Of a stretch of DNA of 26,460 nucleotides, positions 10,051 through 23,644 are shown piece after piece. The DNA lies in IMG/VR virus record IMGVR_UViG_3300034198_000718, positions 1-26,460 of that record; one strand, given 5' to 3'. How positions within the stretch are numbered: position 1 is the stretch's first letter; each line of letters opens with the position of its first letter. The stretch is from a virus. A program made the position numbers and the translations under genes. The notes beneath the pieces were generated by a model. It was given only the letters and a program-made list of their open reading frames with translations. It was not told the DNA's origin and searched no databases.

Positions 10051-11970
10051 ATGAGCAATGAATTTGCAACCCCTTGGTCTAGTGTAGGCTATTTGACTTA
10101 TAAAAGAACTTATGCACGGCGCTTGAACGAAGATGACATCAACAGTCCAACAGAAGAATTCACAGACACTGTAGAACGAGTCATCAAAGCCTGCGAAGAA
10201 CAGCTTAAATGCGGCTTTACAGACGTTGAAAACGAACGCCTAAGGGGTTACCTGCTTGGTCTAAAAGGAAGCGTTGCAGGACGTTTCTGGTGGCAATTGG
10301 GGACAGATACAGTGGACAACCTCGGCATGGCATCGCTTCAAAACTGTGCGTTCCGTGTAGTGGATAAGCCTGTTGAGCCTTTCACATGGGCAATGGACAT
10401 GTTGATGCTTGGTTCTGGTGTAGGTTACAACATTCAGAAAGAGAACGTCAACAAGTTGCCTCCTGTCAATCAGAATTTCAAATGTCCTACCCGTGTTAGC
10501 GATAGTGGAGCAGACTTCATTGTTCCCGACAGCCGTGAAGGATGGGTTGCCTTGCTTGGTAAAACATTGAAGGCTGCTTTCTTGGCGCATAGTTCTGGCA
10601 AACAGACGTTTACCTATTCGACACAGCTGATTCGTTCTAAGGGTGCGCCCATCAAAGGCTTTGGTGGCACTGCATCTGGTCCAGAAGATTTGGTGTGGGG
10701 AATTGAACAGATCTCTAAGGTGTTGGAGAAGAGGGCAGGCAAGCAGATGCGCCCTATCGATTGCCTTGATGTGTTGAACATCATTGGTGCTGTTGTTGTT
10801 GCTGGTAACGTGCGCCGTTCCGCACAAATTGCTATTGGAGATGCAGACGATGTTGAATATTTACTTGCTAAACGATGGGACTTGGGAAATATCCCAAGCT
10901 GGAGAGCCATGTCCAACAACAGCGTGGTGTGCCATGACATTGGAGATTTGCACGACTTCTTTTGGGATGGTTACGAAGGGAAAGGTGAACCATACGGCCT
11001 CATCAATCTTAGACTTTCTAGAAAAATTGGACGCCTCGGAGAAACCCAATACCCTGACCCAAAAGTTCAGGGATATAATCCTTGCGCTGAACAAAGCTTA
11101 GCCGATGGTGAAACCTGCTGCTTGGCTGAAGTGTTCCTGCCCAACATCACAAGCAAAGAAGAACTGCTGGATGTTGCAACCTTGCTCTATCGCATCAACA
11201 AGCATTCTTTGGCCTTGCCTTGCCATCAGAAAGTAACCGAAGCCATTGTGCATGAGAACATGCGTATGGGTATTGGCATCACTGGTGTATTGCAATGTAC
11301 TGAGGAACAGAAGTCTTGGTTGAACGAAACCTACGGTAAGCTTCGTGAGTACGACAATGAGTACAGCACCGCTCATGGTTTCAATCGTTCGATTAAACTT
11401 ACAACAATCAAGCCTTCCGGTACGCTGTCGTTGCTGCCCGGTGTAACGCCCGGATGCCACCCTGCGTATGCCCGGTTCATGATTAGACGTATCCGTATTA
11501 GTTCCAACCATGCGCTGGTGCAGGTCTGTAAAGATCACGGCTACCCTGTGGAATACCAACTAAACTTCGACGGCACTGAGGACCATAGCACTGTGGTGGT
11601 AAGCTTTCCTTTCCGTCATCCAGAGCATGCTGTGCTGGCTAAGGACATGACTGCCTTGTCTCAATTGGAAACTGTGAAATGGTTGCAGGAAGTGTGGAGT
11701 GACAACAGCGTTAGCTGCACTGTCTACTACCGCAAAGAGGAGTTGCCAGAGATCAAGAAGTATTTGAAGAAGCACTACAAGAACAACCACAAGAGCTTGT
11801 CGTTCCTGTTGCATAGCGATCATGGGTTTAAGCAAGCACCACTTGAAGAAATCACTGAAGAGCAATATAAAGATATGGTTGTTAGCACTCGCATCATCAC
11901 TGCAGTTGCTGACGGAAACATCGGATTGGATGACAGCGAATGTGCAAGTGGCGCTTGCCCAATTCGGTAA
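10051..11970 (+). CDS. Adenosylcobalamin-dependent class II ribonucleotide reductase
   Basis: The enzyme (639 aa) reduces ribonucleotides to deoxyribonucleotides with a cobalamin radical and needs no oxygen. It matches the monomeric RtpR-like group. The catalytic loop NPCAEQSL gives Cys345 (radical) and Glu347. Cys356, 11 residues after Cys345, pairs with Cys99 (LQNC) as the redox couple, the same spacing as Cys408 and Cys419 in the Lactobacillus leichmannii enzyme. The C-terminal ECASGACP supplies the swinging pair Cys631 and Cys636. It is about 100 residues shorter than the Lactobacillus protein. The start lacks a strong Shine-Dalgarno. It sits alone behind a terminator, so read-through or a promoter in the 70-base gap must drive it. 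It depends on host vitamin B12. Confidence 0.93.
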   Translation: MSNEFATPWSSVGYLTYKRTYARRLNEDDINSPTEEFTDTVERVIKACEEQLKCGFTDVENERLRGYLLGLKGSVAGRFWWQLGTDTVDNLGMASLQNCAFRVVDKPVEPFTWAMDMLMLGSGVGYNIQKENVNKLPPVNQNFKCPTRVSDSGADFIVPDSREGWVALLGKTLKAAFLAHSSGKQTFTYSTQLIRSKGAPIKGFGGTASGPEDLVWGIEQISKVLEKRAGKQMRPIDCLDVLNIIGAVVVAGNVRRSAQIAIGDADDVEYLLAKRWDLGNIPSWRAMSNNSVVCHDIGDLHDFFWDGYEGKGEPYGLINLRLSRKIGRLGETQYPDPKVQGYNPCAEQSLADGETCCLAEVFLPNITSKEELLDVATLLYRINKHSLALPCHQKVTEAIVHENMRMGIGITGVLQCTEEQKSWLNETYGKLREYDNEYSTAHGFNRSIKLTTIKPSGTLSLLPGVTPGCHPAYARFMIRRIRISSNHALVQVCKDHGYPVEYQLNFDGTEDHSTVVVSFPFRHPEHAVLAKDMTALSQLETVKWLQEVWSDNSVSCTVYYRKEELPEIKKYLKKHYKNNHKSLSFLLHSDHGFKQAPLEEITEEQYKDMVVSTRIITAVADGNIGLDDSECASGACPIR

Positions 11971-13182: not shown

Positions 13183-16100
13183 TTAGCGTCTAGAAGCTAG
13201 GCCACCTGATGCAAACTTCTCAGAAAACTTTCTTATTTCTTCTGTTGGCTTAGTCGGATTAGTAAACTGTTCTTTGCGTAGGTCATCCAGCTTTGACATG
13301 AGTTGCTTAATTGTGTCAGCTTTTTGTGTAGCACCAGCCTGCTCTAATGCTGTGTGTACATTAGTTAAAAAAGAATTGGTATTCAACGTTTGTCCAAATG
13401 GTCCACCAATAACAATGTTGTTTGCAAACTCTTCCAAAAACTTTTGATAGCGTTGACCAATACCTGTCTTCGTAGACGTGGTAGATCCACGTTCAGCAGC
13501 ATTGTTAAGAATCTGTCGAATGCCATCATACGCTTTATATGCAAGCCGCTTATTGATTGATGGGTTTTCCGACAAAGGAACAGACTTTAAACTGTTTCCA
13601 ATATCAAACAACTGTTTCTTCAATTCTTCTTCTTTAGTCACTCGCTTAGAAATATTTTCATACTTAGCACCAACTTCTTTTTCAGCAGAATAGATTTTAA
13701 GTTTGTCAGCTTCTGTGAAAACATCCTCTGTTTCTTTAAACGTACCAGTACGTGGCAATGACACTGGTCGAACAATTGTTGATGATCCGTTTAATGACCG
13801 AGCAGCAACATTTAAATTCTTTTGATCATATGCAAGAGGTGTCATATTAATTCTACTGAACAAATAATTTGCGTAGGGAAGCTCTGTATAAACAAACTTG
13901 TTTACATTCTTTCCACCAAAGCTACCTGTTTCATAGTTCATGTTTACGTCTTTGGTAAATGATACCCCGCCATATTCAAGTTCCATGTGGAATCTCCTAT
14001 GTGTTTGCGGGTCTTGAAAACCATTAGCCTTTAAAAGCTTAACGTTTTCTTCTGGTGAATCAGAGCCATGAAAGAGTTTGATTGGTGGAACATCACTATA
14101 TTTCAAACGCAAAGCATCAAGTTTGGCCTGATAGTCTTGTGCCATAGTTGTAAACTCAGCAACGTCCTTCTTCTTTCTTGGATCAAACTCACGTCCGGTT
14201 TTAATTCGGAAGTCTCCCTGTGCTACAGCAGCAACCTGTTCGGCATCTGGCAGGGCAGCAATGTCCTTGTTGGCTAGGATGTCGGGAAACACATCTGTAC
14301 GATGTTGGCGAATTGCAGCCAGTGCTTTCTTCCTGTCGCCAAGATCATTTAATACTTTAACATCCAAATCACCAGCCAACACCTTTGCATCAGAAAGTCG
14401 AGGTTCAACCAAGGGCTTAGCAACAGGAGCGTTGGGATCGATGGGGTTGCCATCAATGTCATACTCAACTTCCTTCACCACCAATTCATCTTCGGGTGCG
14501 GCCTTAGGTGTTGTAGATTTTGTAGTTGTTGGAGTAGGAGCAGCCTCTGCTGTTGGTTCAATATCAGCAGCCAACTTGTTAAGACTGTTTTGATAGTCTT
14601 CTGGATAAGCTTTCTTATACACATCAAGTTGATACTGACTACCCATCTTACTCTTCAAAACCTTCTCAGCTTCTTGAAGTTGATAGGTTGAAAAAGCAGC
14701 AGGCGTTTTCGTCACAGCACTTGCCACCTCTTTATTACCGGAAACAGCAGGTGCAGGTTCTGTGAACAAGTCAAACTTAGAAGGCTCTACAACCCTTGTT
14801 TCACCTTCGATGGGGCCAAGGTATGGCTCGTTAGATTTAACCACCTTGCTGGTCATTCTAGGGGCTTCTGTGGGGGATAGCACAGGAGTTGGTGTAGGAG
14901 TTGGCAAAGCCTTGGTTGTTTGTTCAGCAACAGGTAATGCTTTCTTAGCAATAACTTGTTCCATTTCTTGCAACAATTCACTGGCACTTTTTGTGGCAGC
15001 TTTACCAACCACACGACCAGCAATGTCAGACAACAAACCACCACCTGCAAATCCGGGTTGCTTGCGGATCACAGCAGCATATGCCAAAGCTGCTTGATAT
15101 TCTTTAGTATCTTCTAGGTTTTTACCAGTTTGCTGTTGATACATTTCGGCTGTTGCACGTTTAACTTCAGGAGCAAGTGCTGAATATTTAACAGCAAAGA
15201 TACGAGCACCTTCGCCTTTGTTAAATGCTTCAACCATAGAATTGTTAGTTGCAATTTCTTTAGCATTCGTTTGTGCAAACGCCAAAGTATTTTGCAAAGC
15301 AATCTTTTTAACATCCTGTGAAGAAGATTTATACCAATCAGTATTTTTTACAGTGTCGTATATTTGTAGTAATAACGGGGCCATCACATTACGTGCAGCA
15401 GCATCAACAACTTTGTCGCCTGTGGAAGTAAACACTTTGTTGGAGGGAATGTGCAGCGTTACCAGTTCTTGTTCAAGTTCTGTAGGTGCTCCCTTAACTG
15501 TGATACCTGTAAACATCTTCAAAGGACCAGCATCGTTGAATGCGGCAGTCTCTCGTGTAGCAGGTTGGTACACTGGCAAGCCTTGCTTTGCAACAGGGAT
15601 ACGCTTTTGCAATTGATTTGCAGCAGACGATGTAAACCCTTCCTGACCAGCAGGGATTTGATAGGCATCACGAGGCAGGGTTTCATCACGGTCAATAGCA
15701 CCAACGATGTCAGAGATTTGCTGCACTGGAACCAAGGCTCTACCTAAGTATTCACCCATCCATTCACCAAAGAATGTAGAGATCTTTTGATCAGCACTAC
15801 CTTCACCAGTTTGCATGTTCGATTGTGCTTCGGCAAACTTATCACCTAACCACGAGTACGTACCAGCAGGGGCTTTAAAGCCTGTCATGGCTTCTAAGAA
15901 TTCCTTAGTCTTGAACTCGTCTGTACGACCCTTGTTAAACTTGACAAGATAGTCACCCATTGCTAGGAATGGAGCGACAGGAAACAAAGCTCTACCGTCA
16001 ACCAAGCTACCATCAGGATTCTTAATGTCATACCAATTGGTGTCTTGATGTTCTTCACGGTATTTGTAAGCAGCATAAATTGCAGCTGTACCAACCATAC

Positions 16101-18381
16101 CCTTAGACACATTCTCCAACCCCTGCATTGTCTGACCAACGCCTGTGGCATCACCCTTAATCTGCTTGGCTGCACCAGCAGCAATATCTACAGATCCAGA
16201 GAACACACCCATCGGGCTATGTTTGTACGTCCACGTCATAGCATTAGCCATGAATCGTGGGAATGGAATGACAGTTGAGCCAATTGGACCAAGCTCTTCC
16301 ACAAACTTTACAGCGTGAAACATTGGACCTTTGGTCGGCATCTTACTGAATGTAGCAGTGAGTGCTTCGTCTGTAGCATTCTTCAACACATCAAATGGTA
16401 CAGTCTTGTTTTGAGCCAGCACGTCATACATGTTGATACCAACACGACTAAGTTGTTTCTCAACAGAAGCTGTGAAGATGGCTTTACGAAAGAAAGAATC
16501 CTGTGCCACGTTAAACGTGTTAGCCATCTGTGCAACCTTAGACAAGTCACCCGGTCCAGCTTCACCAGCAGTACGCAAGATGAGGTTGTGCAGGGATGGA
16601 CTATCCATCAACAAACGCTCAGCAACATCTGAGGACAACCCGGTCTGACCCATATAAAAAGCTGTACGAACAGCATCGTCATACACACCTTTTAAACCAC
16701 CAATAAAACTACCAGTGACAGGCTTGCCACTAATCAGTTCAGAACCAGTTTTACCTACACGATATAGGGCAGATTCAATGGCTTCTGATGCTGTTCCAAA
16801 GGTAACAACAGCAGCACCGGAAAATCCGTTACGAATGGTGGTGGCAAGTTGTGACACCATCAAAGCTTTCAACTCACGATCAAGGCGCATGCCGAAATCT
16901 CTGACGCCAGTAAACGCTGACGTTATAGCATTACGATTGCCATACATTGCATCAACTTCTTTGGCAGCAGCCGAGTCAATGCTTTTGAGTTTGTTTTGAA
17001 TACGGGCCAACACTGAGTAGGCTTGCAGAGTGCGACCAGCATCGCCAACAGTGGTGCGATTCATACGTGCAAAGTCTTCGGCAGTGACACCAGCCTTTGC
17101 CAAACTGTCAGCTAGCACAGCATCATCAATGTTCTCAATGTTCATGAAGACATTTTTCACAGCATCACTAATCTTTTGATCAGCAGCAGGTGCAAGTTCT
17201 GGAACACGCTTCCAAATTTCACCAGCAATCTCCGTAGCCTTCTTGTTCACATCATTGCGAACCTGCATCTCTGCAACAGCTGTAGGATCGCCTTGTGCAT
17301 TGAGAAGTTTACGACCTTCAAAGATGTCATAGGCGTCTTCTAAAGCTTTCTCTGTAGGATCTGTAGCTTTAATTTCAATTTTTGGAAGATTGGTTTCAGT
17401 ATTAATAACACGTTGTTTAAGAATGTCATCCAGCTCAGTGGACGCACCACCCTTGCCAATCTTCTTAGCAGCACCAACAAGACCCGCTGTCTCCAAAGTA
17501 CCACCAATAGCACCCAATGCACCAGCCACTGCCGCTCGTTGACCACTAACACCAGCATCCACCTTGGCCTGCAAAGCATCAATCTCAGGTTTAAACTGTG
17601 CTTGTTGTTCCGTTGTCATCTTAGGCAGCAACTCTTTCATTTGATCAAGTTGTGCCTTGGTTGTGTTTAGTTCAATCTTCTGTGATGTTACGTCAGATAT
17701 GGCAGCACCTGAGCCTTCAACAGTGGGTACAGCAGCAAGAGTTCCTATCCGAGACTTGATAGCAGCTTGCAATCCTTTTTCAGAGGCAGTCTTCATGAAT
17801 GATGAAGTGGCAATCTTGCCTGCACCTAAAGAGATGGCAGTGGTTGGATCGGAAACAATTGCACCCAATACATCAAGCACAGGTTTAACACCGCCTTGAC
17901 CACCCTCTGGACTTAGATAACCAGCGGTGTTATCCCACAAGTCATAGGCTTGTTTAGCTTTCAATATGTCTTCACGTTTAGCATTGTTCAAATATTGAAG
18001 TTCAGATGTGCCTGATAAAAGGTTCATGTTAGCCATACGCATATGGCTAGCCCAACGAGCAATGTAGTCTTCTCGTGTCTCACCATCACGCATGTCACCT
18101 TCTTTACCAAAACGTGAATTGGCATAGTCGTAGATTGCTTTGAACTTGTTATCGTCTTGATACAAGTCTTTGAAGGGTGTTTGTTTAGCTTCTTCAGCTT
18201 TCACTTCCACTGCCCTAGCTTCTAACGCTTTGGCTGGTTGCTTACGCATCAAGAAGGAAGGCTTCGTCAGGTCTTCTTCACCTGCGCCAACAAACGAAGA
18301 AGACCTGTCAGGCTGTACAGGTGCAGAAGGAACAGAAGCTCCCGCAGGAGCCTCCGAAAAAAGGTCGAAATTAGAGGCCAT
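13183..18381 (-). CDS. Giant internal virion protein with possible ART-like C-terminal domain
   Basis: At 1732 residues this is the largest gene, the last of the late operon. GGGAA seven bases upstream fixes the start. Size, position and Ala/Gly-rich helical stretches (about 150-180, 280-310 and 740-790) resemble the large ejected core proteins of podoviruses such as T7 gp16, but no transglycosylase motif is seen. The middle (about 500-850) has the helical look of large phage polyvalent proteins. GFAGGG occurs at 1110-1115 and a similar FASGG at the C-terminus. Pro/Thr linkers flank residues 1150-1290. FDLFSE near the N-terminus recurs as FDLFTE at 1203-1208. LFHGSDS (His1438), GGVSFTKDVNMNY (Tyr1483) and YTELP (Glu1500) resemble the H-Y-E core of ADP-ribosyltransferases. 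The virion role is inferred; the ART call is tentative. Confidence 0.75.
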   Translation of the reverse strand: MASNFDLFSEAPAGASVPSAPVQPDRSSSFVGAGEEDLTKPSFLMRKQPAKALEARAVEVKAEEAKQTPFKDLYQDDNKFKAIYDYANSRFGKEGDMRDGETREDYIARWASHMRMANMNLLSGTSELQYLNNAKREDILKAKQAYDLWDNTAGYLSPEGGQGGVKPVLDVLGAIVSDPTTAISLGAGKIATSSFMKTASEKGLQAAIKSRIGTLAAVPTVEGSGAAISDVTSQKIELNTTKAQLDQMKELLPKMTTEQQAQFKPEIDALQAKVDAGVSGQRAAVAGALGAIGGTLETAGLVGAAKKIGKGGASTELDDILKQRVINTETNLPKIEIKATDPTEKALEDAYDIFEGRKLLNAQGDPTAVAEMQVRNDVNKKATEIAGEIWKRVPELAPAADQKISDAVKNVFMNIENIDDAVLADSLAKAGVTAEDFARMNRTTVGDAGRTLQAYSVLARIQNKLKSIDSAAAKEVDAMYGNRNAITSAFTGVRDFGMRLDRELKALMVSQLATTIRNGFSGAAVVTFGTASEAIESALYRVGKTGSELISGKPVTGSFIGGLKGVYDDAVRTAFYMGQTGLSSDVAERLLMDSPSLHNLILRTAGEAGPGDLSKVAQMANTFNVAQDSFFRKAIFTASVEKQLSRVGINMYDVLAQNKTVPFDVLKNATDEALTATFSKMPTKGPMFHAVKFVEELGPIGSTVIPFPRFMANAMTWTYKHSPMGVFSGSVDIAAGAAKQIKGDATGVGQTMQGLENVSKGMVGTAAIYAAYKYREEHQDTNWYDIKNPDGSLVDGRALFPVAPFLAMGDYLVKFNKGRTDEFKTKEFLEAMTGFKAPAGTYSWLGDKFAEAQSNMQTGEGSADQKISTFFGEWMGEYLGRALVPVQQISDIVGAIDRDETLPRDAYQIPAGQEGFTSSAANQLQKRIPVAKQGLPVYQPATRETAAFNDAGPLKMFTGITVKGAPTELEQELVTLHIPSNKVFTSTGDKVVDAAARNVMAPLLLQIYDTVKNTDWYKSSSQDVKKIALQNTLAFAQTNAKEIATNNSMVEAFNKGEGARIFAVKYSALAPEVKRATAEMYQQQTGKNLEDTKEYQAALAYAAVIRKQPGFAGGGLLSDIAGRVVGKAATKSASELLQEMEQVIAKKALPVAEQTTKALPTPTPTPVLSPTEAPRMTSKVVKSNEPYLGPIEGETRVVEPSKFDLFTEPAPAVSGNKEVASAVTKTPAAFSTYQLQEAEKVLKSKMGSQYQLDVYKKAYPEDYQNSLNKLAADIEPTAEAAPTPTTTKSTTPKAAPEDELVVKEVEYDIDGNPIDPNAPVAKPLVEPRLSDAKVLAGDLDVKVLNDLGDRKKALAAIRQHRTDVFPDILANKDIAALPDAEQVAAVAQGDFRIKTGREFDPRKKKDVAEFTTMAQDYQAKLDALRLKYSDVPPIKLFHGSDSPEENVKLLKANGFQDPQTHRRFHMELEYGGVSFTKDVNMNYETGSFGGKNVNKFVYTELPYANYLFSRINMTPLAYDQKNLNVAARSLNGSSTIVRPVSLPRTGTFKETEDVFTEADKLKIYSAEKEVGAKYENISKRVTKEEELKKQLFDIGNSLKSVPLSENPSINKRLAYKAYDGIRQILNNAAERGSTTSTKTGIGQRYQKFLEEFANNIVIGGPFGQTLNTNSFLTNVHTALEQAGATQKADTIKQLMSKLDDLRKEQFTNPTKPTEEIRKFSEKFASGGLASRR

Positions 18382-18384
18382 TAA

Positions 18385-19752
18385 TTATTCCCAAGTAATA
18401 CCATTCCATTTTTTAGTCATACCATTGTCAATGTATGACTGCCCTTTAATCAACTTACCCTTATCGGGTTTACCATCGGCGGTAAACGGAAGAGGCAATG
18501 CTGCTGCTCCGGCAACGGCAGGTTTGGCAGGCGTTGTTGGTACGGGCGCTACAGTAGCTGCTGCCGGGGGCGGTACAGTTGGTTCTGCAGGCTCCTTGCC
18601 GGGTTTAGCAATGTTTCCTTGCGAATCAAACTTAACGCCAATTTCCAACAATGCACCAGCATGTAAGCTAGACTTCGGCTTACCTGTTTCACTATCTGTA
18701 TATACAGCAATGATGCCCTTACGAGCAGCTGCCGCTGCAGAAGACCATTGTTCAGGAGTAATGGTGGCAGATGGAATAACCTTATCTTCACCAGTAACTG
18801 GATCAGTAATAATAGAGAACATGCCTTTACCAAGACGTTCTTTAAGAGCTTCATTGTAAGCACCACGGGCAATGCGTGAGTAGTCGGTGGACTTAAGCTT
18901 TTCAACTCCTTCACCGGGAGCCTTCTCAAGTTCTTGACGTTTACGCAATTGTTGCTCAGCAGACAACTTCTTATTCTCTGGCTTGTCCATAATTTGATTG
19001 ATCAACAAAGCCTTCTTATCTTTTTGTATTGACAACAACTCTTCGGCAGCAGAGAACGCTGCAGCATCTGATGTAGCTTTGTCCAATGCTGCTGCGTCAT
19101 TGTTTTTCTTAGCATCGACAAATCGATTAACGATTTCTGCCTTCTGTTCATCCTGAGTCTTAGGCTTGGCAAAGGGTGACAAGTTGAACGTACCTTGTGA
19201 CGTAATGGTGGGAGTTGAATATCCCTGTACCGCTTTGATTTGATCAACAGATACTCCAGTTGATGCAGCCAACTGAGCCATTTGACGATCCAATACTTCT
19301 TGTCGTTTATTACCAAAGAACCCACGATCAATCTTTGGTGCAGCTTCACCAGCAGGAGTTGTCGGAAGCTTATAAGTATCTTTTACAAAATCAATAGCGC
19401 TTCTTCCACCAAGATCTCTAGTGGTGGTAACAAGCTTATTAACATCAAGGCTTGAAAAATCAGTGCGGCCTTCTGCAATTTGCTTCTCAATAGTTGCTAC
19501 AACAAGAGGGTTGGTTGCAATTTCAACAAGCTGTGCTTGTGTAGCATTGGGCAACACGCCGCTAATAGATGAGATTTTTGTGCTGTAAGAATTGGCTTGA
19601 TCTTCAGAAGCTTTCTTTAAAGACTTCAGATTTTCAAGACCTTTAGTAACAAACGTTGCGGCGTCTGTCCTTGCTTTTTCTTCATCGTCTTCAAGTCTTT
19701 TGGTTACACCAGTGGCAATGCCACCAGCCAAACTTCCTAATAGAAAATTCAT
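18385..19752 (-). CDS. Internal virion protein-like (455 aa)
   Basis: The product begins with a hydrophobic, Gly-rich segment (LLGSLAGGIATGV). A long region predicted as coiled coil, rich in Lys, Glu, Ala and Gln, follows. After residue 390 comes a Pro/Ala-rich linker and then a small C-terminal tail ending WNGITWE. Such N-terminal membrane-active helices plus coiled coil are typical of podovirus internal core proteins (T7 gp15 position), but I see no direct sequence match. It is coupled to the gene before by TAATG and is followed after three bases by the 1732-residue gene, so the two are likely made and ejected together. Confidence 0.65.
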   Translation of the reverse strand: MNFLLGSLAGGIATGVTKRLEDDEEKARTDAATFVTKGLENLKSLKKASEDQANSYSTKISSISGVLPNATQAQLVEIATNPLVVATIEKQIAEGRTDFSSLDVNKLVTTTRDLGGRSAIDFVKDTYKLPTTPAGEAAPKIDRGFFGNKRQEVLDRQMAQLAASTGVSVDQIKAVQGYSTPTITSQGTFNLSPFAKPKTQDEQKAEIVNRFVDAKKNNDAAALDKATSDAAAFSAAEELLSIQKDKKALLINQIMDKPENKKLSAEQQLRKRQELEKAPGEGVEKLKSTDYSRIARGAYNEALKERLGKGMFSIITDPVTGEDKVIPSATITPEQWSSAAAAARKGIIAVYTDSETGKPKSSLHAGALLEIGVKFDSQGNIAKPGKEPAEPTVPPPAAATVAPVPTTPAKPAVAGAAALPLPFTADGKPDKGKLIKGQSYIDNGMTKKWNGITWE

Positions 19753-20246
19753 TACACTACCTCTTTTTGTTTCTTAGACATTAAACCAGTTTTGACTTCT
19801 TGTTTTACAGGCTGTTCTTGTAAAGGTTGCATAGCTTTCTTCACTGCCATTGCTGCAACTCGTGGCGATATAGTAGTCATCTTCGTAATGTCATCGGGAT
19901 ACATAACTGTACGAATGTTGTTGACAATAGCAAGAGTTGCTAGCATCTCCATAATGACAGGCATTACAAGCATTCCCGCATCCATACTGTGAACACCTTC
20001 AGACACACCATGTAACATGAATGTTTGAGCAATTGACGCTATGGGAGCACGGCTTTCTAGCGCTGTTAAAATTGAGTCAGCAGCATCTGGCGAAGACAAC
20101 TGTTGAATATATAACATTGCAAGATCGTTGATGTCTACAACCTTAGGTGGATTTTGCCAAGGTCTACCCTTTTCAGGTGCTGTCCATGAAACACCCGGTG
20201 GTACGGGTTGCATCATGCCTGTATAGTCTACGTTATTGTTTTCCAT
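19752..20246 (-). CDS. Conserved phage structural protein (164 aa)
   Basis: The N-terminus reads QPVPPGVSWTAPEKGRPW, followed by QNPPKVVD and an acidic helix. A similar start (Pro-x-Pro-Gly-x-Ser, then a short gap and Pro-Trp-x-x-Pro-Pro) recurs from memory in structural proteins of marine tailed phages. The middle is helical with many Met residues (VMPVIMEMLATLAIV), and the end is GLMSKK plus a basic tail. No enzymatic motif is present. It overlaps the 78-residue gene upstream by 14 bases and shares a base with the next start. A virion role is likely from context, but the precise function is unknown. Confidence 0.65.
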   Translation of the reverse strand: MENNNVDYTGMMQPVPPGVSWTAPEKGRPWQNPPKVVDINDLAMLYIQQLSSPDAADSILTALESRAPIASIAQTFMLHGVSEGVHSMDAGMLVMPVIMEMLATLAIVNNIRTVMYPDDITKMTTISPRVAAMAVKKAMQPLQEQPVKQEVKTGLMSKKQKEVV

Positions 20247-20469
20247 GATTCAACATCCCCGCTCTAGCTTCACGAATACCTTGCACATATCCCGCAATGA
20301 TTTTCAATTCTTTATTATTAGAAGATGTGTCAGGCTGTTGTGTTGTATCCTTTGGTGCAGCAAAGCCAGCGCTTTTATCGCTAGTCTTCTTTTTCTTTTT
20401 ACTACTTGCAATGGAGTTATATTTAACAAGCATGTTAATCTTGTTCATATAGTCTTTAATGTGTTGCAT
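20233..20469 (-). CDS. Small basic virion-operon protein (78 aa)
   Basis: GGAAA close before the ATG at 20469 decides the start; the frame is open to 20502, but that extension has no ribosome-binding site. A basic amphipathic helix (MQHIKDYMNKINMLVKYN) is followed by a run of five Lys, an SAGFAAP stretch and a second helix at the C-terminus. It overlaps the end of the 809-residue gene by 14 bases and the start of the 164-residue gene by 14. I do not recognise it. Its GFA motif recalls the GFAxGG motif in its larger neighbours. Confidence 0.55.
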   Translation of the reverse strand: MQHIKDYMNKINMLVKYNSIASSKKKKKTSDKSAGFAAPKDTTQQPDTSSNNKELKIIAGYVQGIREARAGMLNHGKQ

Positions 20470-22885
20470 AATTTTCCTGTACACTATTATTTGCCCAATC
20501 AATCATATCATTATACAGAGTGTGAGCAAGTTCATAATTACCCTGCTCAACAGCATCAACTGTCGGTGTAATGAATTTATCTCTTAAAGTATTGTAGATG
20601 TTTACTGCGTCAGGATGCTTGTTAATTTGCTGAACAAGCAACGGAGCAGTTTCATAATAGTCATGAACCTGTGCAATACGCATTGGATCAAGCGTCATAT
20701 ACTCATCTCTAAATTTACGCATCAACATTAGTTCACGACAATTATCAGGCTTGCCGCTTTGTTGAATAACCGCTGTTGTAATGTAACATCCACCATCAAA
20801 AAAATCTGTTACATCACTGACAATATCTCCAACATCAGGAAGAGCATCCGCTATCCCACCAATTGTTTTAGTAACAGCACCGCCTGTAAGTTTATCTGCA
20901 ACAGTGGATAAGCCCCCAGTTACATCACTCAATGCTACTGTTATCCCTTTAGTTAGTAACTTGTCTTCGTCACTCAAACCACCCCCTGATGCTAAGCGAT
21001 CTTGAGCAATACTATCCAATACTGCTTGTTCGTCTTTGCTTGGGCTACTTGTATTGATCCCTAAGAAGCCAGCAATTTCTTTCAGACTAGCCGTACTGCC
21101 CGACCAAGTCTTCACTGCTGCCTGACCAACCGCCGAAATAGATTCAGCCAACGCTTTCTTCTCAGCAGCTGCCACCGTAGCATTAGCTGTAATGGTGGTG
21201 GCAGCAATAGTGTTTGCTCTAGCAAGTTCGTTATCTCCTGTCTTCCATCCCATTTCAATCTGATCACGATAGGTTTGAGACTGTTGAGCATATTGAACAG
21301 AAGAAAGATCGGTAGCATTCTTTGCATTCACAGCATTGGCAGCATTAATTTCTCTAGTGTTAGCTGTAGAAATATCAGCTAGCAATTTAGCATTTGCCAT
21401 ATTAACTTGCGTTGCCATGTTAGCATTGAAGTCTGCACGGTCATTCGCTTCCTGTGCATTAAACTTCAACACATCAGCAGCAGTAGCCATGTTTGCAATG
21501 GCAGCTTTGTTGGCTTCAGCAGCATTAAATTGACTAGCAGTGAGCGCAAGCTGTGCATTCACCTTGCTAGCATCAAGTGAGTTAGTAGCATTGACAGCCC
21601 TAGCAGCGTTTTCAGCAGCTGTGTCTGTTAAAATGGATTGTGCAATTTCTTGAGCTTTAAAGATTGTTACCTGTTGCCTGTTGTTTAAGTTTGTCAAATC
21701 CATCTGCAAGAACGATTTAGCATTTTCAACAGCCACTTGCTGACGATTGTTTAAGTTGGTTGTCTCAAGATTTGCCATCTGTGCAGCCTTAGCCAACACA
21801 ACAGCATTACGTGCCGACAAGTTTGCAATGTCCATGTTGCTTGTAATACGAGCATTCTCAAGAGCAATGGTTGTAGAAGCATCAAAATTCTTATTGGCAA
21901 TATCAGAAACCTTAGCAGCATTCAACACACGGCTTTGAAAGTTCTGATCAAATTCCTGACCTAAAAATGTAGCACGTTGTTGTGCTGTCACAATTGCCAT
22001 TTGCTGACGATTGGAAAGGTTGGTCAAACCCATTTGCTCAAACACTTTAGCATCAGCTGCGGCAATGGGCGTAGCAGCCTCTAGAGCAGCCTGAATAACT
22101 GCTTGACCTGCTAGGCTACTAGCACCCAATCCACGAGCTGCTAGCTGTGCTGTAGCGGCTCTCATGGACGATGCTGCCCAAGGTGGTGGATTGCCTGCAT
22201 CAAAGTTGGTTAATATTTTATTAAGCTGACCCTGAGTGGTCATGTCTTCTGTAACAGTACCCTGTGCAGCTTGGTTCTGTGCAAGAGCTTCAGCAACTTT
22301 AGCTTGATCAACAGCTGTGCCAGAAACAACTTCACCAGCCTGTAGAGTGCGTTCAGCAGGAGCAACAACCTTCGTTGCTTGTCCTTGTGCCGCTTCAACA
22401 TTCTGAAGAGCTGTAGTTGTTGGCTCTTGTGTAGCAGCAGTGGCTAAGTCTTGAGAAGACAACACGCCTTGTTCTGCTTTTACATTTGCATTAGCTGCAG
22501 CCATAGCTGCCTGTGACGATGCTGCCGTAACTGTGGGGGCTACAACAGTGGTAGGAGCTGCCGTTGTCTGTGCTGTTACGGGAGTGGGAGCAGCAGCTTG
22601 CTGAGCCGTTGTAGGGGCTGTGACAGCCGCTGCCTGCATGTCTGGTGTAACATTGGTCGTAGTGGCGGTTACAACAGGTGCAGTGGGTGCAACAGGGATT
22701 TGAGCAACATCACCACCAGCGGCAAAGCCCGGAGCTTTCTCCCCAAGCTTTGTAACCACTGCTCCGTATTGGCTAGCAGCAGCTGGTGAAGACATTAAAA
22801 ACTCACCAAAGTTTTGCATAGGACCATCAAAGCCCATTTTACGAGCTACGATTTCTCGTTGCTGTTCTGTGAAATTGTCTTTCAT
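20456..22885 (-). CDS. Large helical-repeat virion protein with CFI-box-like C-terminal domain
   Basis: The 809-residue product has four parts. The first is an N-terminal helical segment (1-50). The second begins with GFAAGGD at 53-59 and is a Thr/Ala/Pro/Gln low-complexity region reaching about residue 170. The third is a very long Ala/Asn/Gln-rich helical region with repeats of TNLxNRQQ (about 285, 375 and 395). The last, from Cys700, reads CYITTAV, then a Cys-Arg-Glu-Leu stretch and FRDEYM; it resembles the CFI-box C-terminal domain. The repeats and position fit a fibrous, internal or tail-associated virion protein. No enzymatic motif is seen. It starts by ATGA overlap with the zincin gene. 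The virion role is inferred from context. Confidence 0.65.
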   Translation of the reverse strand: MKDNFTEQQREIVARKMGFDGPMQNFGEFLMSSPAAASQYGAVVTKLGEKAPGFAAGGDVAQIPVAPTAPVVTATTTNVTPDMQAAAVTAPTTAQQAAAPTPVTAQTTAAPTTVVAPTVTAASSQAAMAAANANVKAEQGVLSSQDLATAATQEPTTTALQNVEAAQGQATKVVAPAERTLQAGEVVSGTAVDQAKVAEALAQNQAAQGTVTEDMTTQGQLNKILTNFDAGNPPPWAASSMRAATAQLAARGLGASSLAGQAVIQAALEAATPIAAADAKVFEQMGLTNLSNRQQMAIVTAQQRATFLGQEFDQNFQSRVLNAAKVSDIANKNFDASTTIALENARITSNMDIANLSARNAVVLAKAAQMANLETTNLNNRQQVAVENAKSFLQMDLTNLNNRQQVTIFKAQEIAQSILTDTAAENAARAVNATNSLDASKVNAQLALTASQFNAAEANKAAIANMATAADVLKFNAQEANDRADFNANMATQVNMANAKLLADISTANTREINAANAVNAKNATDLSSVQYAQQSQTYRDQIEMGWKTGDNELARANTIAATTITANATVAAAEKKALAESISAVGQAAVKTWSGSTASLKEIAGFLGINTSSPSKDEQAVLDSIAQDRLASGGGLSDEDKLLTKGITVALSDVTGGLSTVADKLTGGAVTKTIGGIADALPDVGDIVSDVTDFFDGGCYITTAVIQQSGKPDNCRELMLMRKFRDEYMTLDPMRIAQVHDYYETAPLLVQQINKHPDAVNIYNTLRDKFITPTVDAVEQGNYELAHTLYNDMIDWANNSVQENYATH
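21626..22033 (-). repeat. TNLxNRQQ helical repeat region inside the 809-residue protein
   Basis: In residues 285-420 the sequence TNL(S/N)NRQQ recurs three times (about 288, 377 and 397). Each copy is followed by a hydrophobic/Ala-rich helix with a Lys or Gln near the middle. A degenerate copy (ANLSARNAVVL) lies between the first and second. The 110-residue gap between copies 1 and 2 compared with 20 between copies 2 and 3 shows that the array is irregular. Confidence 0.65.
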
Positions 22886-23181
22886 TCTTTGGTTGCCTTA
22901 TACAAATATTCTAAAAACTCTTGGTTGTCTTTTAACAATGCTATTAATCCTGTGGCTGTGCAATGAACTTGTCGCTCACTCATTTTAGTCTGCATAGCAT
23001 CGTCAATGGCATGCACAATTTCATGTAATAAAGTGTCAGCTTCCAACAATGGGTGCTGACCTTGCTTTATATCAATCCTCAACTTATCGTAGTCACATTG
23101 TCCCCACAAACCTGCGAGTTCATCTTTAACTACTATGTCATAAACCCTGCCAACTATTCTAACATGGGTTGGTAATGACAT
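22882..23181 (-). CDS. Small HExxH zinc metallopeptidase-like protein
   Basis: The 99-residue product carries LLHEIVHAID with His53, Glu54 and His57, the zincin catalytic signature. A following ER motif (Glu69 may be the third ligand) precedes the helix ATGLIALLKDN. An N-terminal beta half (VRIVGRVYDIVVKD, then LRIDIKQG) matches small phage or SprT/ImmA-type minimal zincins. It is far shorter than usual proteases, so it may be a minimal protease or an inactive fold. It lies between the endolysin and the repeat protein in the structural operon. The stop of the endolysin is one base upstream. The substrate is unknown. Confidence 0.75.
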   Translation of the reverse strand: MSLPTHVRIVGRVYDIVVKDELAGLWGQCDYDKLRIDIKQGQHPLLEADTLLHEIVHAIDDAMQTKMSERQVHCTATGLIALLKDNQEFLEYLYKATKE

Positions 23182-23182
23182 G

Positions 23183-23644
23183 CTACACCTTTGTTTTATA
23201 TTCTGCTTCGGTCAACAACCCAACAACATACTTGTTAGCTGGACGGAAGATAGTTAGCTTTTGACCACGCATTTCAGGAGCAAAGCTGATGTGTGTCCAA
23301 CGAGCATACTCATGAATCATTTGATCAAACTTAATGCCAGAAGCTTCAATGGCTTTGCAAACTGCCAAAGGATCGCCAAAGCCAGCACAGGTGAAGTCAA
23401 TGGCCCAACCATCCATGTGGCTGCTAATCTTGCTACCGCCCACTGCAACGTTTACTTCTGGCAAACGAAGCCATGAGTTTACGTTGATGCCCTTACCAAG
23501 CAGGGTACGAACCTTCTCCATGCCTACAGCAGCAGTCTTCATATTCTCCAACTGAGCTTCGCTTGGTTGATTATTAATACCCATGCGAATGGCTGTGTCA
23601 GAATGAGTTGCTTCTTCAAGTGTAAAGTGTTCACTGAGCTGCAT
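23183..23644 (-). CDS. Endolysin, M15 peptidase (D-Ala-D-Ala or L-Ala-D-Glu type)
   Basis: The 153-residue product has the M15A core. After SWLR and a VGG turn, SSHMDGWAIDF gives His76 and Asp83 (HxxxxxxD), and WTHISF gives His118, the third zinc ligand. The N-terminal segment LSEHFTLEEAT is the usual start of such enzymes. It should cleave peptide cross-bridges in peptidoglycan during lysis. There is no signal peptide, so it needs a holin for release. It overlaps the holin-like gene before it by 14 bases and is followed by the zincin after one base. The family call is firm; the exact bond cut is not known. Confidence 0.88.
   Translation of the reverse strand: MQLSEHFTLEEATHSDTAIRMGINNQPSEAQLENMKTAAVGMEKVRTLLGKGINVNSWLRLPEVNVAVGGSKISSHMDGWAIDFTCAGFGDPLAVCKAIEASGIKFDQMIHEYARWTHISFAPEMRGQKLTIFRPANKYVVGLLTEAEYKTKV

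What the first reader, a model, noticed from the sequence alone, without database searches (positions are those of the whole stretch)
13183..18381. Possible ADP-ribosyltransferase-like domain in the C-terminal part of a giant ejected virion protein
Residues about 1430-1510 contain LFHGSDS (His1438), GGVSFTKDVNMNY (Tyr1483) and YTELP (Glu1500), in the order and approximate spacing of the H-Y-E core of PARP/diphtheria-type ADP-ribosyltransferases. The domain lies behind Pro/Thr linkers at the end of a 1732-residue protein that by size and place is likely to be ejected into the host with the DNA. T4 ejects the ART Alt in a comparable way. If correct, this phage delivers an effector enzyme at the moment of infection. 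The signature is short and could be coincidental.
Basis: partly seen in the sequence, partly recalled or inferred. Interest (0 to 1): 0.65.

Follow-up and report, generated by a model that had tools for sequence, protein, structure and literature searches.

The report
ADP-ribosyltransferase module on phage ejection protein

Summary
In 101 distinct domain sequences (window plus 100 homologues) His1438 is invariant, Glu1500 is not (66 E, 14 K, rest S/T/D/V/Q/N), and Tyr1483 drifts (39 Y, 39 F, rest A/M/V/L/P). Two other glutamates, E1550 and E1552 (an ExE motif), are invariant, as is the S1474-F1475 strand. With 66 homologues AlphaFold2 gives a confident model (pLDDT 91, pTM 0.87). All 50 best PDB Foldseek matches are ADP-ribosyltransferase (ART) superfamily domains (probability up to 0.99, best E 0.006, TM about 0.4). 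The model puts H1438 on strand 1, SFT on strand 2 and E1552 at the start of a later strand; E1500 lies on a different strand. Pfam and PHROGs do not recognise the domain. Cultured HMO-2011-like relatives lack it. In 10 of 80 decidable homologues the ART part is its own gene (540-690 aa) directly behind an ejection-type protein of about 1,150 aa; in 70 it is fused. This is a new, divergent family of phage ART. Injection and host target are inferred, not shown.

The parts
13183..18381 (-). Giant 1732-aa protein: ejection-type module + linkers + ART domain + helical tail
   Evidence: homologues in >100 viral contigs
15052..18381 (-). Residues 1-1110: ejection-type module shared with cultured HMO-2011-like phages (1128-1218 aa proteins)
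   Evidence: highest conservation at 401-900
15031..15051 (-). Residues 1111-1117 GFAGGGL: junction; the point where the ART part starts as a separate gene in other phages
14392..14931 (-). Residues 1151-1330: variable Pro/Thr-rich linkers
13687..14229 (-). Residues 1385-1565: ART-fold domain with its conserved N-terminal helices
14068..14070 (-). His1438 (strand 1), invariant in 101/101
13954..13962 (-). Ser1474-Phe1475-Thr1476 (strand 2); 101/101, 101/101 and 100/101; Ser sits where related ARTs have Tyr/Phe
13882..13884 (-).
13726..13734 (-). Glu1550-Thr-Glu1552 (ExE), both Glu invariant 101/101; E1552 opens the strand 1552-1555; candidate catalytic acids
13186..13686 (-). Residues 1566-1732: variable helical tail ending in the conserved C-terminal motif GGLASRR
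18385..19752 (-). 455-aa protein directly upstream, in the position of T7 gp15 (analogy only)
   Evidence: no homology to T7 gp15 tested for this ORF
19752..20246 (-). 164-aa protein, in the position of T7 gp14 (analogy only); HMO-2011 has a 164-aa counterpart

Best explanation
Residues 1385-1565 are a divergent ART-superfamily domain that most likely uses NAD+ through His1438 (strand 1), the Ser1474-Phe1475-Thr1476 strand, and Glu1552 and/or Glu1550 (ExE). It sits at the C-terminus of, or in some relatives is a separate protein encoded right behind, the large ejection-type virion protein of an uncultured clade of HMO-2011-like podoviruses. Most likely it is carried in the virion and enters the cell with the DNA. 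There it would ADP-ribosylate a host macromolecule at the start of infection, possibly RNA polymerase as T4 Alt does, because no phage RNA polymerase was found in these genomes. Shown by computation: fold class, invariant H and ExE, purifying selection, modularity. Inferred: catalysis, packaging, injection, target.
For: Conservation of H1438, S1474, F1475, E1550 and E1552 in 101/101 sequences. Confident AF2 model, pLDDT 91 and pTM 0.87, with H on strand 1, SFT on strand 2 and E1552 at a strand start. All 50 top PDB Foldseek hits are ART superfamily: exotoxin A domain III, tankyrase, diphtheria-toxin family, RES toxin; probability up to 0.99. The second BFVD hit is a phage NAD(+) ADP-ribosyltransferase and the fourth a viral PARP-like protein. 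hhalign against a six-sequence ART-PolyVal profile pairs H with H and SFT with FFT, E 1.3e-4, probability 54%; none of 300 column shuffles reaches that score. Best weak PDB sequence hits include two tRNA 2'-phosphotransferases, which are ART-fold, E 0.8-1.5. Purifying selection, median dN/dS 0.12. Separate-gene forms with Shine-Dalgarno-like sites and at least 4 changes between fused and separate on the tree. Single-subunit RNAP family PF00940 gives no hit over its cut-off in nine 52-60 kb contigs of the clade and HMO-2011.
Against: Foldseek E-values are only moderate (best 6e-3) and TM-scores about 0.4. The domain carries extra N-terminal helices that no ART match explains. The usual strand-2 Tyr is replaced by Ser. 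Pfam and PHROGs give no hit and the ART-PolyVal HMM does not match. A first AF2 run with 14 sequences failed (pLDDT 48.5). Virion presence and ejection rest on gene order and size; no sequence link to T7 gp14/15/16 was found.
Confidence: 0.66

Rival explanations
1. The domain has the ART fold but is not delivered: it acts inside the producing cell or during virion assembly.
For: In 10 of 80 decidable homologues it is a separate gene of the late, structural cassette; no proteomic evidence of virion presence was found.
Against: Repeated fusion to the ejection-type protein (70 of 80 homologues; at least 4 changes on the tree). Published surveys place about 44% of phage ARTs in contexts suggesting packaging into the head (PMC9503650).
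Confidence: 0.17
2. ART-fold enzyme that uses NAD+ without modifying protein: an NADase/cyclase, or a KptA-like RNA 2'-phosphotransferase or RNA/DNA modifier.
For: The best weak profile matches in the PDB are KptA/Tpt1 proteins; RES NADase-type toxins are among the Foldseek hits; Ser in place of Tyr at strand 2 may change specificity.
Against: An invariant ExE is more typical of transferases acting on macromolecules (established knowledge of ARTs). The KptA matches are not significant and cover only the strand-1 histidine region.
Confidence: 0.2
3. A degenerate or structural ART-like domain without catalysis, kept for binding inside the virion or to host factors.
For: Tyr lost at strand 2; extra helices; invariant structural residues (G, P, R) outnumber the candidate catalytic ones.
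Against: H1438 and both ExE glutamates are invariant in sequences down to about 40% identity, which a dead enzyme would not need.
Confidence: 0.12
4. Coincidental motif in an unrelated fold.
Against: All 50 top structural hits are ARTs, with an independent profile-profile match that pairs the same motifs.
Confidence: 0.05

Closest known systems
ART-PolyVal (PF18760), as in the virion RNA polymerase of Roseovarius Plymouth podovirus 1
   Same: ART domain inside a giant phage protein believed to be injected; same LYHG(T/S) strand 1 and G-x-[YFS]-F-T strand 2; profile-profile E 1.3e-4
   Different: Different carrier (HMO-2011-like ejection-type protein, no vRNAP or peptidase domain found); no GYDG motif, instead RP..LPR and ExE; PF18760 does not match
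H-Y-E ARTs: PARP/tankyrase, diphtheria-toxin family, exotoxin A domain III
   Same: Nearest solved folds; His on strand 1, Glu at the start of a late strand
   Different: Ser instead of Tyr on strand 2; second invariant Glu two residues before; extra N-terminal helices; about 12% identity
T4 Alt (R-S-E ART injected with the DNA)
   Same: Proposed logic: a virion-carried ART acting at infection of a phage without its own RNA polymerase; Ser on strand 2 and an ExE motif
   Different: His, not Arg, on strand 1; no sequence match; injection not shown here
T7 gp16 and HMO-2011 phage1322_22
   Same: Last and largest gene of a three-gene cassette (164/502/1128 aa in HMO-2011, 164/455/1732 here)
   Different: HMO-2011, CRP-345, CRP-603 and ctYwJ313 lack the ART part; no detectable homology to T7 gp16

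Membership tests
ART superfamily (fold) | Split beta-sheet ART fold | tested here: met
   AF2 pLDDT 91; top 50 of 50 PDB hits ART, E 0.006-0.3, TM about 0.4
ART superfamily (fold) | Conserved strand-1 His or Arg | tested here: met
   H1438 101/101, on strand 1434-1439
ART superfamily (fold) | Conserved acidic residue on a late strand | tested here: met
   E1550 and E1552 101/101; strand 1552-1555
ART superfamily (fold) | NAD+ binding and ADP-ribose transfer | not testable with these tools
   needs biochemistry
H-Y-[EDQ] ART clade | Tyr on strand 2 | tested here: not met
   Ser1474 in 101/101 at that position; Tyr1483 only 39/101
H-Y-[EDQ] ART clade | H on strand 1 and E/D/Q on the last core strand | tested here: met
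ART-PolyVal (PF18760) | Pfam HMM match | tested here: not met
   no hit in the window protein or its relatives; positive control RPP1 hits at 1e-10
ART-PolyVal (PF18760) | catalytic Asp in GYDG on strand 5 | tested here: not met
   invariant Y-D-G in A5 has no counterpart in the family
R-S-E ART clade (T4 Alt/Mod) | Arg on strand 1 | tested here: not met
   H1438 101/101
R-S-E ART clade (T4 Alt/Mod) | ExE motif | tested here: met
   E1550-x-E1552 101/101
Polyvalent phage proteins (Iyer et al. 2017) | Several effector domains in one giant protein | tested here: inconclusive
   Only the ART domain recognised; LPD38 no match in the window record; UniProt names a viral relative of the ART region 'Large polyvalent protein associated domain-containing'
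T7-type ejection proteins | Sequence homology to gp14/gp15/gp16 | tested here: not met
   hhalign probability 0.3% or less against single T7 sequences
T7-type ejection proteins | Present in the virion and ejected | not testable with these tools
   no proteomics found

The most novel reading that the evidence does not exclude
The domain founds a separate ART clade (H / Ser-Phe-Thr / ExE) that mixes the signatures of the H-Y-E and R-S-E clades. The ART protein is an independent virion effector, sorted into the particle by a short C-terminal GGLA(S/T)RR tag. A similar GFAxGGL motif lies at the end of the ejection-type module, so fusion to the ejection protein would be a repeated shortcut.
Probability: 0.2. 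Interest if true: 0.7.

Novelty: new variant of a known kind. Interest (0 to 1): 0.52.

Why it matters
HMO-2011-type phages are reported among the most abundant phage groups in ocean viromes (PMC6918029). The clade with this module is known here only from metagenomes. If the reading is right, an ART family that current libraries miss is carried by more than 100 sequenced phage contigs, and podoviruses, reported to encode ARTs in only about 3% of cases (PMC9503650), use the strategy more often than sequence searches show. The mix of fused and separate forms offers a natural way to test how effector enzymes are loaded into virions.

Tried and rejected
Glu1500 and Tyr1483 as catalytic residues: rejected by conservation. 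First AF2 model from 14 sequences: too poor to use (pLDDT 48.5). Pfam, PHROGs and PF18760 searches: no family match. Relatives of the domain in genome contigs, phages and plasmids: none. LPD38 as a second domain: not in the window protein. Homology to T7 gp14/15/16: none. Programmed frameshift at the split junction (considered because the second ORF lies in another frame without an early ATG): dropped, because a TTG start with a GGGG Shine-Dalgarno-like site 7 nt upstream explains it. One of 200 shuffles gave an anomalous hhalign score of 132; a clean rerun of 300 shuffles gave a maximum of 23 against 32.6 for the real pair. A count of motif rarity by shuffling used a pattern written after seeing the family, so it is descriptive only.

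Full report
Observation. The 1732-aa ORF is on the minus strand (18381 down to 13183) and carries the quoted strings at the quoted residues. A loose H-Y-E pattern is common in shuffles of the protein (128 of 3000), so the string alone would not be evidence.

Homologues. Four scans of viral contigs with the protein or its domain gave more than 100 relatives and 101 distinct domain sequences including the window. No relative of the domain was found in cultured phage, plasmid or bacterial-genome collections at the sensitivity used. Residues 1385-1565 are conserved (66% mean pairwise identity) between variable linkers and tail (43-45%), with median dN/dS 0.12.

Catalytic residues. His1438, Gly1439, Ser1474, Phe1475, Glu1550 and Glu1552 are invariant in 101 of 101; Thr1476 in 100. 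The better acid is the ExE pair E1550/E1552; the data do not say which of the two is catalytic.

Fold. A first AlphaFold2 run with 14 sequences failed (pLDDT 48.5). With 66 sequences the model is confident (pLDDT 91.0, pTM 0.87, five models within 1.5 points). Strands map to 1434-1439 (H1438), 1473-1476 (SFT), 1496-1501 (contains E1500) and 1552-1555 (starts with E1552). Foldseek against the PDB lists ART-superfamily structures in all 50 top places: exotoxin A domain III, tankyrases, diphtheria-toxin family, RES toxin. Probability reaches 0.99, but E-values are moderate (best 6e-3) and TM-scores about 0.4, in line with a divergent core plus extra helices. In BFVD the first hit is a family member and the second a phage NAD(+) ADP-ribosyltransferase. 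Independent sequence support: hhalign to an ART-PolyVal profile gives E 1.3e-4 and pairs the same motifs, with 0 of 300 column shuffles scoring as high; the best weak PDB profile hits include two tRNA 2'-phosphotransferases, also ART-fold.

Architecture. The first ~1000 residues match the 1128-1218-aa proteins of HMO-2011, CRP-345, CRP-603 and ctYwJ313, which lack the ART part. The gene is the last of a cassette of a 164-aa, a 455-aa and the giant protein, like 164/502/1128 in HMO-2011. This resembles T7 genes 14-15-16 in order, but no homology to those was found. In 70 of 80 decidable homologues the ART part is fused; in 10 it is a separate gene of 540-690 aa directly behind a 1112-1181-aa ejection-type gene, with its own start: TTG after GGGG in six, ATG with an AGGA site in three, and ATG without a clear site in L063. 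The junction corresponds to window residue ~1111-1117. On the domain tree the state changes at least four times on well-supported branches. The split is seen in several unrelated contigs, which speaks against assembly error.

How it probably works. Published work proposes that giant phage proteins with ART domains, and T4 Alt, are packaged in the head and injected to modify host proteins (PMC5512222, PMC9503650). By analogy this module would enter with the ejection-type protein and ADP-ribosylate a host target early. No hit over the cut-off to the single-subunit RNA polymerase family PF00940 was found in nine 52-60 kb contigs of the clade or HMO-2011, so dependence on host RNA polymerase, and hence an Alt-like target, is a reasonable guess. 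Packaging, injection, activity and target are not shown.

Classification. It meets the fold, strand-1 His and late-strand acid criteria of the ART superfamily. It does not meet the Tyr criterion of the H-Y-[EDQ] clade, the Arg criterion of the R-S-E clade, or the HMM and GYDG criteria of ART-PolyVal. I file it as a new divergent ART family, a new variant of the known theme of virion-associated phage ARTs.

Noticed in passing
window 13186-13206 and 15031-15051 (-); 20456-22885 (-): Conserved C-terminal motif (K/R/S)GGLA(S/T)(R/K)(R/K) at the end of nearly all ART-bearing proteins, and a similar GFAxGGL at the junction where the ejection-type module ends; GFAAGGD also near the N-terminus of the 809-aa protein and KGGLATQ near the C-terminus of the ctYwJ313 protein. 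A shared sorting, docking or cleavage tag is possible.
   Followed up: partly
L031, L032, L033, L039, L052, L053, L063, L122, L129, L141: The ART part is a separate gene behind the ejection-type gene; six begin with TTG 7 nt after GGGG.
   Followed up: yes
window residues 5-8 and 1203-1206 of the giant protein (13183-18381, -): Short repeat FDLF(S/T)E at the N-terminus and again in the linker; the linker copy was seen only in the window protein and the N-terminal copy also in L001.
   Followed up: no
window 20456-22885 (-): Ala/Gln/Asn-rich 809-aa protein ending in a Cys-containing CYITTAV...LRxFRDxY-like module; no Pfam or PHROG match at useful significance.
   Followed up: no
window 22882-23181 (-): Small 99-aa ORF with a HExxH-like LLHEIVHAID motif (phrog_1233), next to a peptidase-type endolysin at 23183-23644.
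   Followed up: no
window 10051-11970 (+): B12-dependent ribonucleotide reductase, shared with HMO-2011-type phages.
   Followed up: no
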